Under the pieces are notes generated by a model. It saw only the letters and a list, made by a program, of their open reading frames with translations, was not told where the DNA came from and did no database searches. Shown here piece by piece: positions 19,887-29,936 of a DNA stretch of 35,813 nucleotides. The stretch is from Akkermansia muciniphila (lineage in GTDB: Bacteria; Verrucomicrobiota; Verrucomicrobiia; Chthoniobacterales; Chthoniobacteraceae): NCBI GenBank assembly GCA_945874745.1, contig CAMCIN010000006.1:1-35813 (forward strand), written 5' to 3'. The position numbers and the translations under genes were made by a program. Numbering within the stretch: the first letter of the stretch is position 1; each line of letters starts with the position of its first letter.

Positions 19887-20333
19887 ATGCCATCGACCCA
19901 TACTTCTCTTTTTTATCATTTTGTGTTCAGCACGAAAAATAGGATGCCGTGGATTTCAGCGCCGTATCAGGAGAGGTTGCACGGGTAATTGGACGGGGTT
20001 GTCCGCGGGGCCGCTGGGATTCCCTACGCGGTGGGCGGGGTGGAAGACCATGTGCATGTATTGGCTCAGTTGTCGGCGACGTGTCGGATTTGCGATTTGA
20101 TTCGAGATTTGAAGAGCGAATCCTCCTTATGGATGCATCGGGTGATGCGGCATCCTAATTTCGCTTGGCAGGAGGGGTACGGGGCCTTTTCGGTGAGTGC
20201 GCCGGCGGTGGATGAGGTGAAGGGGTACATTCGAAACCAGCGAGCGCATCACGCTAAACGGGGGTTTGAGGTAGACTATCTGGAGATGTTAGGAGCTGGC
20301 CGGGTTCAATTTAACAAAGAACACCTGTGGTGA
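19887..20333 (+). pseudogene. IS200/REP-associated Y1 transposase, broken by a nonsense codon
   Basis: The reading frame starts at ATG 19887 (MPSTHTSLFYHFVFSTKNR) and would give 148 residues, but codon 34 (19986-19988) is TAA. The frame continues without shift: DGVVRGAAGIPYAVGG, then the HUH-type metal motif EDHVHVL, and the catalytic-Tyr region KGYIRNQRAHH. The family has a Tyr at the place of the stop (LHGYL-type sequence), so a single base change TAT/TAC to TAA explains it. A TTG at 19989 could restart translation, but the N-terminal strand would be lost. Related enzymes move IS200/IS605 elements or REP palindromes by single-strand transposition. Probably inactive. Confidence 0.85.
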
Positions 20334-20560: not shown

Positions 20561-21778
20561 TCAGCAGTAGGCGGAAGGCTGGTAGCGGAAATTGGGGGAG
20601 TATTCGGTCGGATCGTATGAGCGGGCCCAGACTGCGGTGGCCGCCCCCGAAATCGGCGGCACCAGCCAGTCCCAGCGGCCTGTAACAGGCCGACCGGCGG
20701 AGCGCTCGTCCTCTTCAAAGCGCACGTGGGCCTGGGCCACGGTGTGGTGGTCCGCCATGCGCACGCCGGCCGTCTGGTACGAATGGAGCACCGCGCGGTT
20801 CAACTCGACCAGGGCGCGGTCCCGCCAGAGGGACGACTCGCGGTTGGAGAAAATCCCGAGCCGTTGCGCAATCTCGGGCAGCATGTCGTAGCGGCTGATG
20901 TCCGCCAGATTGCGCGCCCCGATCTCGGTGCCCATGTACCAGCCGTTGAACGGAGCCGCCGGATATTGGATTCCCCCGATTTCGAGCAGCATGTTTGAGA
21001 CGATTGGCACGGCATACCACCGGAGGCCAAGCTCCTTGAACCAGTCCCACTCTGGGTGCACGAGGGGAACCTCCAGCACGCAGCCGCGCGGAATTTCGAA
21101 AAGCCGCGCTTTCTGTCGGAGGCCGGAAAGCAAGAGGGGCAGCACGTCAAAGCGTCCCTTTTCCGCCGGGGGTTTCCACCCGAGGGCGAGGCATTTCTCC
21201 GTGAAGGCCGCCTCCGCCGGGTCCCCGAGAACGGCCCCGTCAGCAGCCCGGTAGCCGGCGTAGCGGAGCAGTTGGTAGTTCCAGATTCTCAGTGTGTTTT
21301 TGGAGCGGGGGCGGGCGGGGGCGAATACGGTCACCAGCGGCCGCACCGCCCCCGCGTTAGTCGCGGCGTCCACGTGCGCAACGCATTGGGATGCGGCGTC
21401 TTCGAGGGAGCGGAGCCCGCGTGCGTCGCGCACCTCCAGTTGCTTCCAGAAAAAACGCCCAATGCAGCGCACGCTGTGCCGCCACGCAAAGCGGCAACCC
21501 CAAAGCAGCTCCTCCGGTGAATGCTCGTAGAAACCGTGCCGCTCAATCTCACGCCGGACCTCTTCCCGTCGAGTCTGGGTCACAGGCGGGCCGCCCGGCT
21601 CAATTTCCAGGAGGTCCAAAAAGGCGCCGGCCTTGTCCGTGAGCGAGAGGCGCCGCGCCGGCTTGAGGCGCTGGTACACCGCCGCCGCAGCCAGTGGCGT
21701 CGGGCCCTGCGGGCTCCCTGCGGTTTGCGGGCAAAAGGACATCAATCGGAGCAGTCTTCTAGGGCTGAAAATCGGCAC
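20561..21778 (-). CDS. nos: Bacterial nitric oxide synthase, oxygenase domain only
   Basis: 405 residues from a GTG at 21778, chosen because GGGAGGAG precedes it by about 10 bases. It makes NO and citrulline from arginine with haem and a reduced pterin. Motifs in order: the haem-thiolate region AWRHSVRCIGRFFW (axial Cys105, Trp111); IWNYQLLRYAGY; LEIGGI with Ile268, where bacterial enzymes have Ile and mammalian ones Val (slow NO release); the arginine-binding NGWYMGTEIGARN (Glu285); ALVELNRAVLHSY; DHHT; and the pterin-site WDWLVPPIS (Trp371) with SYDP near the end. All match Bacillus NOS over the full length. A His replaces the usual Asn in AWRN. No reductase domain, calmodulin site or N-terminal zinc hook is present, so electrons must come from separate flavoproteins. 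Its 5' end overlaps the SDR gene by 20 bases. The NOS call is firm; the physiological role is unknown. Confidence 0.96.
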   Translation of the reverse strand: MPIFSPRRLLRLMSFCPQTAGSPQGPTPLAAAAVYQRLKPARRLSLTDKAGAFLDLLEIEPGGPPVTQTRREEVRREIERHGFYEHSPEELLWGCRFAWRHSVRCIGRFFWKQLEVRDARGLRSLEDAASQCVAHVDAATNAGAVRPLVTVFAPARPRSKNTLRIWNYQLLRYAGYRAADGAVLGDPAEAAFTEKCLALGWKPPAEKGRFDVLPLLLSGLRQKARLFEIPRGCVLEVPLVHPEWDWFKELGLRWYAVPIVSNMLLEIGGIQYPAAPFNGWYMGTEIGARNLADISRYDMLPEIAQRLGIFSNRESSLWRDRALVELNRAVLHSYQTAGVRMADHHTVAQAHVRFEEDERSAGRPVTGRWDWLVPPISGAATAVWARSYDPTEYSPNFRYQPSAYC

Positions 21779-22607
21779 TCAACGCCGTCTCCTCCCAGAG
21801 CCTCAATTCCGCTTCGCGTTGGGCCAGCGTGCGGCGGCTCTTCTCGAGCGCGTATTTCCCGAGCACCAAGCGCTGGGGCGGCTTCTCGGCGTCGACCGCC
21901 TGCAAAATGGCCTGCGCGGCCCGCGCCGGATCGCCCGGTTGTTTGCCGTCGATGGTCCCCAAAAACTTCCCGAACTTGCCCGAGCTGCCCTCGTACTCGG
22001 CTAGGCCTGACGGCGTGCGCTCGAGTCCGCGTGAAATGAAGTCGGTCCGAAAGGGGCCGGGCTGCACCAAGGTAACTTTCAGGCCGAAGGCGCGCCCTTC
22101 CAGCGCCAGCGATTCGCTCACTCCCTCAAGGGCGCACTTGGCGGCACCATAAATCCCGAAGCCGGCGTAGTTGGCGATGGCTGCGGCGGCGCTGATGTTG
22201 AGGACGTGCCCGCTTTTTGCCGCCCGGAAGTGGGGCAGCGCGGCCCGGATCAGCGCGAGCGGACCGAAGAAGTTGACTGCGAAGTTGCGCTGGATCTGTT
22301 CGGGGGTGGACTCCTCCACGGCCCCGACGAGCCCGTACCCGGCGTTGTTAGCGAGCACGTCGAGCCGTCCAAACACGCGTACCGCCTCCTCCACCACAGC
22401 GCCGCACTGGGCAGTGTCGGTGACGTCGAGCTCCGCCAGATGGACGGTACCCGGCCAGCGCGTGGCCAACTCGAGCAGGGGCGCGGTGTTTCGCGCAGTG
22501 GCGACCACCCGGTCTCCCCGTTCCAAAGCGGCCTCAGCCAAGGCGCGGCCAAATCCGCTCGAGCAACCGGTAATCAGCCAAACTTTTTCAGTCATGCCCG
22601 CATTCAT
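21759..22607 (-). CDS. Short-chain dehydrogenase/reductase (SDR), coupled to nos
   Basis: 282 residues from 22607; an ATG at 22595 (MTEKVWLITG) is an equally good start. It is a classical SDR: the cofactor motif TGCSSGFG near the N-terminus, NNAG, the Ser of the active site region (ISAAAAIANYAGF) and the catalytic YGAAK, followed by VQPGPFRTDF. It uses NAD(P)(H); the substrate is unknown. The gene ends inside the nos gene (20-base overlap), which predicts translational coupling. Sepiapterin reductase, which makes the NOS cofactor tetrahydrobiopterin, is also an SDR, but the sequence resembles general SDRs and does not show sepiapterin-reductase-specific features that I can confirm. Confidence 0.92.
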   Translation of the reverse strand: MNAGMTEKVWLITGCSSGFGRALAEAALERGDRVVATARNTAPLLELATRWPGTVHLAELDVTDTAQCGAVVEEAVRVFGRLDVLANNAGYGLVGAVEESTPEQIQRNFAVNFFGPLALIRAALPHFRAAKSGHVLNISAAAAIANYAGFGIYGAAKCALEGVSESLALEGRAFGLKVTLVQPGPFRTDFISRGLERTPSGLAEYEGSSGKFGKFLGTIDGKQPGDPARAAQAILQAVDAEKPPQRLVLGKYALEKSRRTLAQREAELRLWEETALSADFQP

Positions 22608-26726: not shown

Positions 26727-28055
26727 TCAGGCGAGAAGTTCGCGGATCGGGGCGGCCTTGTTTTCCACGCGGTGGAAGGTGGGCATCCCGGGCAGGTCGT
26801 ATTCGCCGTAGGGGTCGAGGCCCAGGGCGGTGAAGATGGTGGCGAAGAGGTTCTGTTCGGAAAAGGGTTTCCCGAGGACGTCCACGCCGTCGGGGTCGGT
26901 GGCGCCGACGACCACCCCGCGTTTGAGTCCGCACCCGGTCATCATCATGCTCCACGCGTTGGGATAATGGTCGCGGCCGCGGGCGGGGTTGAGCCAGGGG
27001 GTACGGCCAAATTCGCCCATGGCGATGACAAGGGTCGAGTCGAGCAAGCCCCGCTGTTCCAGATCGGTGACCAGGTGATAGAGAACGCGGTCCAACTCGG
27101 GCACGAGCATCTGGTGGATCTCGTGCTGGAAGACGTGGTTGTCCCAGTTCATGCCGTTCGAGACCATGACAAAAGGGGCGCCCTTCTCCACCAGGTTGCG
27201 GGCCATGAGCGAATGCTGGGCAAAGCTTCCAGGGCCGTAGCGCTCCCTGTCCGCTTTGGGAAGCTTGTTGAGATCGAACAGGTCGGCGCTTGCCGCGAGG
27301 CCGCGCATGCGTTCAAAGGCCGCGTTCTGGCTTCGCGCAACCGTGCCGCCCCGATCGCGCTCGTACTTTGCCGTGAGGAACTTCCGCAGGAGCTCGCGCG
27401 CCTCCCTGTCCTGCGCGGGGATCGCTTCCTCCACGGCGTTCTTAAACTGCGTGTACTCGCCACCCAGCCTCACGGGGGCGTGCTCGGCCCCCAACCAGCC
27501 CGCCCAGTTGCCTGCCTTGAAGGTTTCGAACTCGTTTCCGCCCGGAATCGGATCGAGCAGGATGAAGTTGGGGATGCGGGCGTCCAACTGTCCGAGCGCT
27601 AGTGAAAGCGAGGAGCCGAGCGTGGGGCGGGTGAAGCCGGCCCGGTCCGGGTTGCCGCGCTGGAGGAGCGAGATGGCCTGAAGGTGCTCCGACTGCGCGG
27701 TCTTCATGCAGCGCACCACGTTGAGCTTGTCGGCGATGCTGGCGCACCTAGGCATCAGCGACGAGAAGTGCACACCCGGGACCTTGGTCGGAATGCTGCC
27801 AAAGGGACCGCTGCTGGGGCGGCCCGGCTTGGGGTCCCAGGTTTCAAACTGGCTGGGCGCGCCGCACAGCCACAAAAGGATGCAGTGTTTCTGTGCCCTT
27901 TTGGTTTCGGCGGCAAAAACCGGGTGGTGAAAAAGACCGCTAAAGCTCGTGGCGCTCGCCAGCGCTCCGCCGGTGAGGCCCTTGAGAAAGAGGCGCCGGT
28001 GGAGGTGGTGTTCGTCGGTGCGGCACTGCCCAGGAGGAGGAGGGGAGGAATCCAT
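26727..28055 (-). CDS. DUF1501 protein with Tat signal
   Basis: 442 residues. The N-terminus has a twin-arginine signal (HRRLFLKGLTGGALASA), so it is exported folded. The mature part has the DUF1501 hallmarks: LWLCGAPSQFETWDPKPG, FPSLMPRCA-like segment, and late in the chain TLVIAMGEFGRTPWLNPARGRDHYP. This resembles alkaline-phosphatase/sulfatase-fold metal sites (GEFGRTP and GRDHYP). The family has no proven activity. DUF1501 genes in PVC bacteria almost always pair with a DUF1549/DUF1553 cytochrome gene, as here: that gene ends 3 bases upstream. Confidence 0.93.
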   Translation of the reverse strand: MDSSPPPPGQCRTDEHHLHRRLFLKGLTGGALASATSFSGLFHHPVFAAETKRAQKHCILLWLCGAPSQFETWDPKPGRPSSGPFGSIPTKVPGVHFSSLMPRCASIADKLNVVRCMKTAQSEHLQAISLLQRGNPDRAGFTRPTLGSSLSLALGQLDARIPNFILLDPIPGGNEFETFKAGNWAGWLGAEHAPVRLGGEYTQFKNAVEEAIPAQDREARELLRKFLTAKYERDRGGTVARSQNAAFERMRGLAASADLFDLNKLPKADRERYGPGSFAQHSLMARNLVEKGAPFVMVSNGMNWDNHVFQHEIHQMLVPELDRVLYHLVTDLEQRGLLDSTLVIAMGEFGRTPWLNPARGRDHYPNAWSMMMTGCGLKRGVVVGATDPDGVDVLGKPFSEQNLFATIFTALGLDPYGEYDLPGMPTFHRVENKAAPIRELLA

Positions 28056-28058
28056 TGG

Positions 28059-29936
28059 CTAGGGCATGGTAAGAAATTCAGCGCTGGTCAACAGCGCCCA
28101 GAGCAGGTCGCGCACGCCCCCGGCCGGGTCGGTCTTCCTGGCTTCGAGAAAGGCTTGCAAACGCGCGGTTTCCTCCGCGTCGGGTTCCCGGGAATACACT
28201 GCGGCGAAGGCCCCTCTCAGGCGGGCGCTGGTGTCCGGAAGCGCCGCAAGCCGCTCCGTAGTGTTTCCGGGGCTGGACTGGAGGAAGCCAGCCAGCGCCG
28301 GGGAGGAGTTGAGAAACTGGGCCTGCTGGAACGAGGCGCTGTACTCGTAGGGCAGGAGGTCGGGGATGGCTGCGACGGCCGCCTTGCGGAGCGCTTCGGA
28401 GTCCGCGGAAAGACCAGCCGCCACCCGCCAGGAACGGGCGAGTTGTTCGGCGGAAAGCGGCCGTTCCAAGGCGCCGGCAAACGCCTCCGGCGGGTGGGCG
28501 GAGGCTCCCAGTGCGTAGGCGTGGGAAAGCACGATGCCGCGGACGAGGCGGCGCGCGTCGTGGTTGCTGGCAGAAAAATCGCGGGCCAGCCAGTCGAGCA
28601 GTTCCGGTTGGGCGGGGGCGTTGCGCTCGTTCATTTGGTCCGCCGGATGGACGATCCCGCGGCCGAAAAAAACCGACCACATGCGGTTGACGAAGGCGCG
28701 GGCGAGCAGCGGGTTCTCGTGCGTGGCAAGTTCCGCAAAAGCCTCGCGCCTAGAGTATTTGGGCACCCTGACCTTCGCCTTTGGATCGAGGTATTGTTCA
28801 TCGGAATCCTCCTGCTTTTGATCGCCGGCCGGCCACGTCTCCGAAAGCGTGCGGCCGGTCAGGAGGGTCACGAGGGCGGGCTGGGATTCCTTTTTGAGGT
28901 TGGTGAAATTTACAAAACCCCCGGTGGCCGACTCTGCCACGCCGTTGGAGCCCTCCACGTTTTTGCCCCGGTTGAAGGCCGTGACCAGACCCCAGTAGTG
29001 CGCCTGCTTGATCTCGCGGGCCAGCGGATGGTCGTGGCACTGGGCACAGTCGATCTTCGTCCCGTAGACCACCGGGGCGACGGCTTCCGCGATCACTTGG
29101 TGGTCGTTTTTGCGCTCGTAAAGAAACCACGTGGAGCCCTTGTCCTCAGGCTTGTCAGCGCGCGCCGTCAGAAAGGCCCGGACGGTCTCGTTCCAGGGGC
29201 GGTTGGTGCGGAACGCGGTTTCAAGAAAGGCCCACCAGCCGTTTTGCTTGCGGCGGTCCTCGGAGTTGCCCCGCTTTGTGCGGCCCAGGAGAAAAACGTC
29301 CCACAACTCCCGCATGTGCAAGGGGTACTCGGCGGAGGCAAGCAGGCTGTCCACGAGTGCCGCGCGTCGGGACTCCGGCGGCGCCTTCAAAAAGGCTTCC
29401 AGCTCCTGCTCCGAGGGAATGCGCCCCACAAGGTCCAGATGAAGTCGGCGGCACCAGAGGGCCTCGGTGGTGGGGGGCGCCGGAGTGAACGCCCCGCGGC
29501 TCCAGCTTTGCGCGAGCAGCGAGTCAATGGCCTGCTCGACGGAGGCGAAGTGTTTCTGTGCGCCGGCCGCTTCTGTCTGGCGGGCCGGAGCGGCGGCGAG
29601 TGCGGTAATCCACTGGCTGATAGCTTCGCGGTCCGCGTCAGAGAGCTGCTTTTTGGGCGGCATGTGGGGGTCGGCCCCGGCTGCGAGTTGCGTGAAAAGG
29701 ATGCTTTCGGCCGGTTTGCCGGGGAGGACTGCGGGGCCGGATTCGCCGCCCTTGAGCACGGCCTGGAGCGTGTCGAGTTCGAGGCCTGCCTTTTGCTCAA
29801 TGGGCCCGTGGCACTTGACGCACTGGAGGTCAAAAAGGGGCTGGATCTTGCGCGCCCACAGGACGGAGGAATCCGCGCCGACGGAGGCCTGCGGCCCGAG
29901 CAAAAGAAGAAGTGGCAGGAGGCGGGAGTGGTACAT
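28059..29936 (-). CDS. Planctomycete-type cytochrome C / DUF1549 / DUF1553 protein
   Basis: 625 residues with a signal peptide (LLPLLLLLGPQASVGA). The N-terminal PSCyt1-type domain has a c-type haem site CVKCH (Cys39, Cys42, His43) followed by LELDTLQAVLKGG, then a MPPKKQLSD segment. The DUF1549 domain spans about residues 150-350 and contains a second CxxCH (CAQCHDHP), which is usual in this family. DUF1553 fills about 390-620 (NPLLARAFVNRMWSVFFGRGI). Such proteins are exported and linked to polysaccharide catabolism in marine and soil PVC bacteria, but the reaction is unknown. Paired with the DUF1501 gene. Confidence 0.93.
   Translation of the reverse strand: MYHSRLLPLLLLLGPQASVGADSSVLWARKIQPLFDLQCVKCHGPIEQKAGLELDTLQAVLKGGESGPAVLPGKPAESILFTQLAAGADPHMPPKKQLSDADREAISQWITALAAAPARQTEAAGAQKHFASVEQAIDSLLAQSWSRGAFTPAPPTTEALWCRRLHLDLVGRIPSEQELEAFLKAPPESRRAALVDSLLASAEYPLHMRELWDVFLLGRTKRGNSEDRRKQNGWWAFLETAFRTNRPWNETVRAFLTARADKPEDKGSTWFLYERKNDHQVIAEAVAPVVYGTKIDCAQCHDHPLAREIKQAHYWGLVTAFNRGKNVEGSNGVAESATGGFVNFTNLKKESQPALVTLLTGRTLSETWPAGDQKQEDSDEQYLDPKAKVRVPKYSRREAFAELATHENPLLARAFVNRMWSVFFGRGIVHPADQMNERNAPAQPELLDWLARDFSASNHDARRLVRGIVLSHAYALGASAHPPEAFAGALERPLSAEQLARSWRVAAGLSADSEALRKAAVAAIPDLLPYEYSASFQQAQFLNSSPALAGFLQSSPGNTTERLAALPDTSARLRGAFAAVYSREPDAEETARLQAFLEARKTDPAGGVRDLLWALLTSAEFLTMP

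What the first reader, a model, noticed from the sequence alone, without database searches (positions are those of the whole stretch)
20561..21778. Full-length bacterial nitric oxide synthase oxygenase in a Verrucomicrobiota-like genome
All main NOS signatures are present: the haem Cys in RCIGR, the substrate Glu in NGWYMGTEIGARN, the pterin Trp in WLVPPIS, and the bacterial-type Ile gate. Known bacterial NOS come chiefly from Bacillales, Deinococcus, actinobacteria and a few others. I am not aware of a characterised one from this phylum. The AWRH substitution for AWRN just before the haem Cys is unusual among the forms I know. There is no attached reductase, so the electron donor is unknown.
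Basis: partly seen in the sequence, partly recalled or inferred. Interest (0 to 1): 0.85.

Follow-up and report, generated by a model that had tools for sequence, protein, structure and literature searches.

The report
Ordinary oxygenase-only NOS from Verrucomicrobiota
A freshwater-type Verrucomicrobiota genome carries a genuine, intact nitric oxide synthase gene just downstream of a short-chain dehydrogenase gene; it is an ordinary new member of a known enzyme family already reported from this phylum, though its nitric-oxide exit gate is valine, as in animals, and not the isoleucine described as universal in bacteria.

Summary
The gene is real. It lies on the minus strand and most likely starts at the ATG at 21742 (393 aa; end 20561), 16 nt after the stop of a same-strand SDR gene. 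It matches PF02898 with 478 bits and has the haem Cys, substrate Glu, pterin Trp and a confident NOS fold (pLDDT 90, Z 47 to animal NOS haem domains).

Three interpretive claims change. (1) NOS in Verrucomicrobiota is not new: it was reported in freshwater MAGs in 2017 (PMC5673642), and I find it in 18 of 388 sampled phylum genomes. (2) AWRH is not unprecedented: the crystallised Geobacillus NOS (2flq) has the same His. (3) The gate is Val, not Ile. V260 aligns with gsNOS I223, 25 residues before the substrate Glu. This contradicts a published statement that all bacterial NOSs have Ile; 30 of 104 aligned NOS here have Val.

Eight of 12 genus genomes carry NOS, always directly after the same SDR; one lacks it from an otherwise intact locus. 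The SDR also occurs in NOS-less genera, so a dedicated partnership is unproven. No reductase is attached or adjacent. The genus has FolE2 but no FolE. The best reading is a stand-alone, THF-dependent NO synthase fed by general reductases.

The parts
   Evidence: PF02898 478 bits; shared M-x-x-C-P start in siblings; AF2 model pLDDT 90.1, Z 47 to NOS haem domains
   Evidence: aligned with the haem Cys of 2flq and 1m7v; Cys in 104 of 104 aligned NOS
21476..21478 (-). His101 codon (H89 from the ATG) in AWRH
   Evidence: His in 7 of 7 genus NOS and in gsNOS 2flq, Asn in 95 of 105
20999..21001 (-). NO-release gate residue Val260 codon (V248 from the ATG); aligns with gsNOS I223, bsNOS I218
   Evidence: 25 residues before the substrate Glu, as in 2flq and 1m7v
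20924..20926 (-). substrate Glu codon (E285; E273 from the ATG)
   Evidence: Glu in 104 of 104 aligned NOS
20666..20668 (-). pterin-stacking Trp codon (W371; W359 from the ATG)
   Evidence: Trp in 103 of 103 aligned NOS with a letter there
21743..21758 (-). 16-nt junction between the SDR stop (TAG 21761-21759) and the NOS ATG
   Evidence: no promoter-like or terminator-like site in it
21759..22607 (-). classical SDR oxidoreductase (PRK06180 subfamily) directly upstream, same strand; family-wide gene to which NOS is linked in 8 of 12 genus genomes

Best explanation
It is a stand-alone (oxygenase-only) bacterial NO synthase. As a haem-thiolate homodimer it should oxidise L-arginine through N-hydroxy-arginine to citrulline and NO, using tetrahydrofolate as the pterin (the genus has FolE2 but no FolE) and electrons from general cellular reductases, not a dedicated one. 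A candidate donor is the genus's FAD/NAD-binding, FNR-like protein (G000:C81) working with ferredoxin. The gate residue is Val, so NO release should be faster than in Ile-gated bacterial enzymes such as gsNOS. The gene belongs to the chromosome of a Chthoniobacteraceae-like genus, sits directly after an SDR gene and is probably co-transcribed with it; it has been lost in some species. Shown by computation: the family, the catalytic residues, the gate residue, the conserved SDR-NOS order, a clean NOS-less site and the cofactor-pathway genes. Inferred: catalysis, dimer, THF use, electron donor, release rate, co-transcription and any physiological role (probably stress protection or signalling, as for other bacterial NOS).
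For: PF02898 at 478 bits over 357 of 362 positions. Up to 395 bits to solved bacterial NOS (2flq, 1m7v) with all catalytic residues aligned. AF2 model pLDDT 90.1, pTM 0.88, Z about 47 over 366 residues to eNOS and nNOS haem domains. One copy in the genome; 7 of 12 genus genomes by profile, plus an eighth, G002, whose NOS N-terminus follows the SDR and is cut by the contig end. In all 8 the same SDR is immediately upstream. G003 has the same flanks as G001 and G007 but no NOS. The NOS codon-position GC (0.68/0.51/0.80) equals its neighbours'. FolE2 in 11 of 12 and FolE in 0 of 12 genus genomes. FAD_binding_1 in 10 of 12; Flavodoxin_1 in only 3. A review states that most bacterial NOS lack a reductase, use general cellular reductases and probably THF (PMC3701330).
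Against: No activity, dimer, cofactor or expression data. The SDR exists in NOS-less genera, so linkage may reflect shared descent rather than function. The electron donor is a guess from gene content in incomplete MAGs. Absence of FolE and of flavodoxins is by the PF01227 and PF00258 profiles only.
Confidence: 0.9

Rival explanations
1. SDR and NOS form a dedicated two-gene system: the SDR serves NOS, for example by regenerating a reduced pterin (as sepiapterin or dihydropteridine reductases, also SDRs, do) or by acting on a compound that NOS-derived NO modifies.
For: Directly adjacent on the same strand in all 8 carriers, with 28-92 nt between the match ends or a 16-nt junction, although most other neighbours differ between carriers. 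On a Nostoc plasmid an NOS also lies between two SDR-family genes, and in Rhizobium an SDR lies two genes away.
Against: The SDR is present without NOS in G003, G005, G008 and G009 and in other genera of the family at 57-64% identity. NCBIfam puts it in PRK06180, with no pterin-reductase model among the 25 best. No such SDR lies next to NOS in the Bacillota, actinobacterial or other verrucomicrobial loci examined. The two Nostoc SDRs are each about 355 aa and were not shown to be orthologues.
Confidence: 0.1
2. The gene was recently acquired by this genus from another phylum.
For: NOS is patchy: 8 of 12 in the genus, none found in the family's other genera searched, 18 of 388 in the phylum. 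The genus clade has a long stem (0.78) and does not join other verrucomicrobial NOS with support.
Against: Holding the 22 verrucomicrobial NOS together gave a better likelihood and is not rejected (p-AU 0.73). Members of the genus clade are 63-72% identical to each other apart from one close pair, so presence in the genus is old. Composition equals the neighbours'.
Confidence: 0.15
3. The contig or gene is contamination in the MAG.
For: The assembly is a 382-contig draft.
Against: The NOS and its SDR recur in 8 genomes of the genus with varied flanks, composition matches the neighbours, and the flanking gene in the closest sibling is 95% identical.
Confidence: 0.01

Closest known systems
Geobacillus stearothermophilus NOS (gsNOS, PDB 2flq)
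   Same: Oxygenase-only; same haem Cys, Glu and Trp; same AWRH motif; 54% identity
   Different: Gate is Ile223 in gsNOS, Val260 here; residue 134 is His in gsNOS, Tyr168 here; different tree clade; an SDR lies upstream here
Bacillus subtilis NOS (bsNOS, PDB 1m7v)
   Same: Oxygenase-only fold and active site; 48% identity
   Different: Asn instead of His in AWRN/H; Ile gate
Verrucomicrobial NOS reported in freshwater MAGs (Opitutae-Tous-C4FEB, PMC5673642)
   Same: NOS gene in the same phylum, similar habitat type
   Different: The passage read gives only presence and the absence of adjacent toxin genes, no sequence analysis; orthology with this gene was not tested
Sorangium cellulosum scNOS and Synechococcus syNOS
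   Same: Same oxygenase domain family
   Different: Those carry attached reductase modules; this protein has none

Membership tests
NOS oxygenase (PF02898) | whole-domain profile match above the curated cut-off | tested here: met
   478.2 bits against a cut-off of 22.7, positions 5-361 of 362
NOS oxygenase (PF02898) | proximal haem Cys with the preceding Trp | tested here: met
   C105 and W99 align with those of 2flq and 1m7v
NOS oxygenase (PF02898) | substrate-binding Glu in the GTEIG motif | tested here: met
   E285
NOS oxygenase (PF02898) | pterin-stacking Trp | tested here: met
   W371
NOS oxygenase (PF02898) | NOS haem-domain fold | tested here: met
   AF2 pLDDT 90.1; Z 47.4, rmsd 1.7, 367 aligned to 3nli_A
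NOS oxygenase (PF02898) | homodimer, haem and pterin binding, NO plus citrulline from L-Arg | not testable with these tools
   needs purified protein
Bacterial Ile-gated NOS subtype | Ile at the NO-release gate (bsNOS 218, gsNOS 223) | tested here: not met
   V260 here and Val in all 7 genus NOS
Reductase-fused NOS (scNOS, syNOS or animal type) | attached reductase module | tested here: not met
   393-405 aa, only PF02898 found; no reductase in the adjacent genes
Pterin-reducing SDR (for the upstream gene) | match to a sepiapterin, dihydropteridine or pteridine reductase family | tested here: inconclusive
   best NCBIfam model is PRK06180 (oxidoreductase); 218 models matched and only 25 were shown; best solved relative is 3m1a, a putative dehydrogenase

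The most novel reading that the evidence does not exclude
A Val-gated, fast-releasing bacterial NOS lineage confined to one freshwater verrucomicrobial genus, working as a pair with the upstream SDR as its dedicated cofactor or product enzyme.
Probability: 0.07. Interest if true: 0.5.

Novelty: new member of a known kind. Interest (0 to 1): 0.25.

Why it matters
It places a complete, long-resident NO synthase in a genus of uncultured Verrucomicrobiota, with a defined locus and natural NOS-less relatives for comparison. The Val gate in this clade, and in about a quarter to a third of the bacterial NOS sampled here, corrects the published statement that all bacterial NOS have Ile (PMC6104048) and gives natural variants for testing how the gate sets NO-release rate. 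Otherwise it adds one more oxygenase-only NOS to a well-known family.

Tried and rejected
Recent cross-phylum transfer: the quick tree put the genus clade away from other verrucomicrobial NOS, but the AU test did not reject (and the likelihood favoured) one verrucomicrobial clade, so I make no transfer claim. The second AU test, of the genus with G040 and G056, did not finish.

A dedicated SDR-NOS pair: weakened by SDR orthologues in NOS-less genera.

An adjacent reductase in other verrucomicrobial NOS loci: the nearest genes share no common family between loci.

An MscS-NOS fusion in a Bacteroidota genome (L170): rejected, because the two halves are joined across a run of X, that is unresolved bases.

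NOS remnants beside the SDR in the non-carriers G003, G005, G008 and G009: none adjacent at E 10; G002 proved to be a carrier cut by its contig end.

RNA families in the window: none. Sigma-70 promoter or terminator at the junction: none.

Full report
WHAT IS THERE. The finding's coordinates hold an open frame on the minus strand; read on the plus strand they contain stops. The frame matches the NOS oxygenase family PF02898 at 478 bits, E 1.9e-143, over positions 5-361 of 362. The GTG lies inside the upstream gene. The ATG at 21742 (M13) is the likelier start, because siblings share an M-x-x-C-P beginning at the equivalent place. The protein is then 393 aa, starting 16 nt after the stop of the upstream SDR gene. 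An AlphaFold model (pLDDT 90.1, pTM 0.88; the one segment under 50 is residues 1-13) matches animal NOS haem domains at Z about 47.

First, AWRH: the crystallised Geobacillus enzyme (2flq) reads AWRHSNRCIGR. Among 105 aligned NOS, 95 have Asn and 8 His, namely the 7 of this genus and gsNOS. So His is a genus-clade trait also reached in gsNOS, and is compatible with a folded, haem-bound enzyme. Second, the gate: gsNOS I223 and bsNOS I218, each 25 residues before the substrate Glu, align with V260 (VPIVSN), not with the Ile before it. All 7 genus NOS have Val. Val is what animal NOS have; [quoted passage not shown] In the alignment the gate is Ile in 69, Val in 30 and Leu in 5; a motif-based count over a wider set gives 78, 35 and 2, with 7 rows not parsed. 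The sample is biased towards relatives of the query, so these are not frequencies for all bacteria. A second gate position known to me from gsNOS work (His134; own knowledge, not looked up) is Tyr168 here, Tyr in 5 and His in 2 of the genus.

IS IT NEW TO THE PHYLUM? No. PMC5673642 (2017) reports an NOS gene in Opitutae-Tous-C4FEB and says it was common to other reconstructed MAGs. A profile search finds NOS in 18 of 388 phylum genomes, 16 of 199 genera, against 12 of 395 in the phylum of a Bacteroidota genome and 3 of 398 in that of a Pseudomonadota genome. I found no paper that characterises a verrucomicrobial NOS, within an open-access library.

GENUS AND LOCUS. NOS is found by profile in 7 of 12 genus genomes and in none of the 24 genomes of other genera of the family searched. 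An eighth, G002, has the NOS N-terminus (MDSCPVNVSETAAK...FFRLLESEPNG) directly after its SDR, cut by the contig end. In all 8 carriers the same SDR is immediately upstream on the same strand; other neighbours are shared only by some of them. In G001 and G007 the order is unknown gene (c2) - SDR - NOS - pyridoxal-dependent decarboxylase - hydroxyacid dehydrogenase. G003 has the same order without NOS and without a detectable remnant. Three sibling contigs can be matched by length and number to public records: G010 to CANJYI010000338.1 (Chthoniobacteraceae), G007 to QQND01000005.1 (Verrucomicrobia Chth-196), and G006 to CAMDSZ010000205.1, titled Akkermansia muciniphila and probably mislabelled.

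IS THE SDR A PARTNER? Possibly co-transcribed, but not shown to be functionally coupled. The SDR is a classical SDR (PRK06180 subfamily), present in all 12 genus genomes and in several NOS-less genera of the family at 57-64% identity. It is therefore older than, or independent of, the NOS link.

COFACTOR AND ELECTRONS. No genus genome has FolE (PF01227, 0 of 12) but 11 of 12 have FolE2 (PF02649), so a folate route exists and THF is the likely pterin (PMC3701330 says most bacteria probably use THF). No reductase is fused or adjacent. An FNR-like FAD/NAD protein occurs in 10 of 12 genomes, in G000 at C81, with or without NOS. Flavodoxin_1 was found in only 3. This fits the published view that bacterial NOS use general reductases (Gusarov 2008, cited in PMC3701330). 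The choice of donor is inference.

ORIGIN. The genus NOS form one clade (100/100, stem 0.78) whose deeper place is unresolved. A single verrucomicrobial clade is not rejected (p-AU 0.73, and a better likelihood than the free search). With members 63-72% identical to each other apart from one close pair, the gene is old in the genus; the clean absence in G003 next to carriers with the same flanks is best read as loss. The SDR tree is too weakly resolved to prove this. Contamination is excluded by syntenic siblings and matching codon-position GC.

VERDICT. A real, complete, ordinary oxygenase-only NOS; a new member of a known kind. The modest new points are the Val gate and the stable SDR-NOS locus with a natural NOS-less site.

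Noticed in passing
L092:1-8557, with L094, L095 and L128 (G001, G011, G007, G003): A carotenoid-type cluster (two crtI-family desaturases, aldehyde dehydrogenase, acyltransferase, CruG-like glycosyltransferase) lies just upstream of the unknown gene c2, the SDR and, in the three carriers, NOS. It is absent beside NOS in the window.
   Followed up: partly
L132 (G213, Verrucomicrobiota); also L031 and L086: NOS fused behind two cNMP-binding domains, a BFD-like 2Fe-2S domain and an FAD/NAD reductase module, resembling the described Sorangium NOS; in L132 the NOS part is cut by the contig end.
   Followed up: partly
L167 (G695, phylum of a Bacteroidota genome): Globin - NOS - flavodoxin - FAD-binding protein, the domain order described for the cyanobacterial syNOS.
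   Followed up: no
L178 (Nostoc plasmid pC052_E) and L180 (Rhizobium rhizoryzae plasmid): NOS genes on plasmids with SDR-family genes nearby: SDR-NOS-SDR in Nostoc, SDR-CoF synthetase-NOS in Rhizobium. Not tested for kinship with the window's SDR.
   Followed up: no
window 19989-20333 (+): Y1_Tnp (IS200-like) transposase fragment just downstream of the NOS 3' end, on the opposite strand.
   Followed up: no
window 26727-29936 (-): DUF1501 gene next to a PSCyt1/PSCyt2/PSD1 planctomycete-type cytochrome gene.
   Followed up: no
G000-G011 genomes: FolE (PF01227) not found in any of 12 genus genomes, FolE2 (PF02649) in 11 of 12.
   Followed up: partly
L012 (CAMDSZ010000205.1): Record titled Akkermansia muciniphila matches contig C205 of G006, a genus relative of the window, by number and length; the species label is probably wrong.
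   Followed up: partly
L098 (G256, same class): A verrucomicrobial NOS that falls on a long branch away from the others, near Bacillota or a Rhizobium plasmid NOS depending on the tree.
   Followed up: no
L170:139-2529 (+): Apparent MscS-NOS fusion joined through a run of unresolved bases; treat as an assembly or masking gap.
   Followed up: yes
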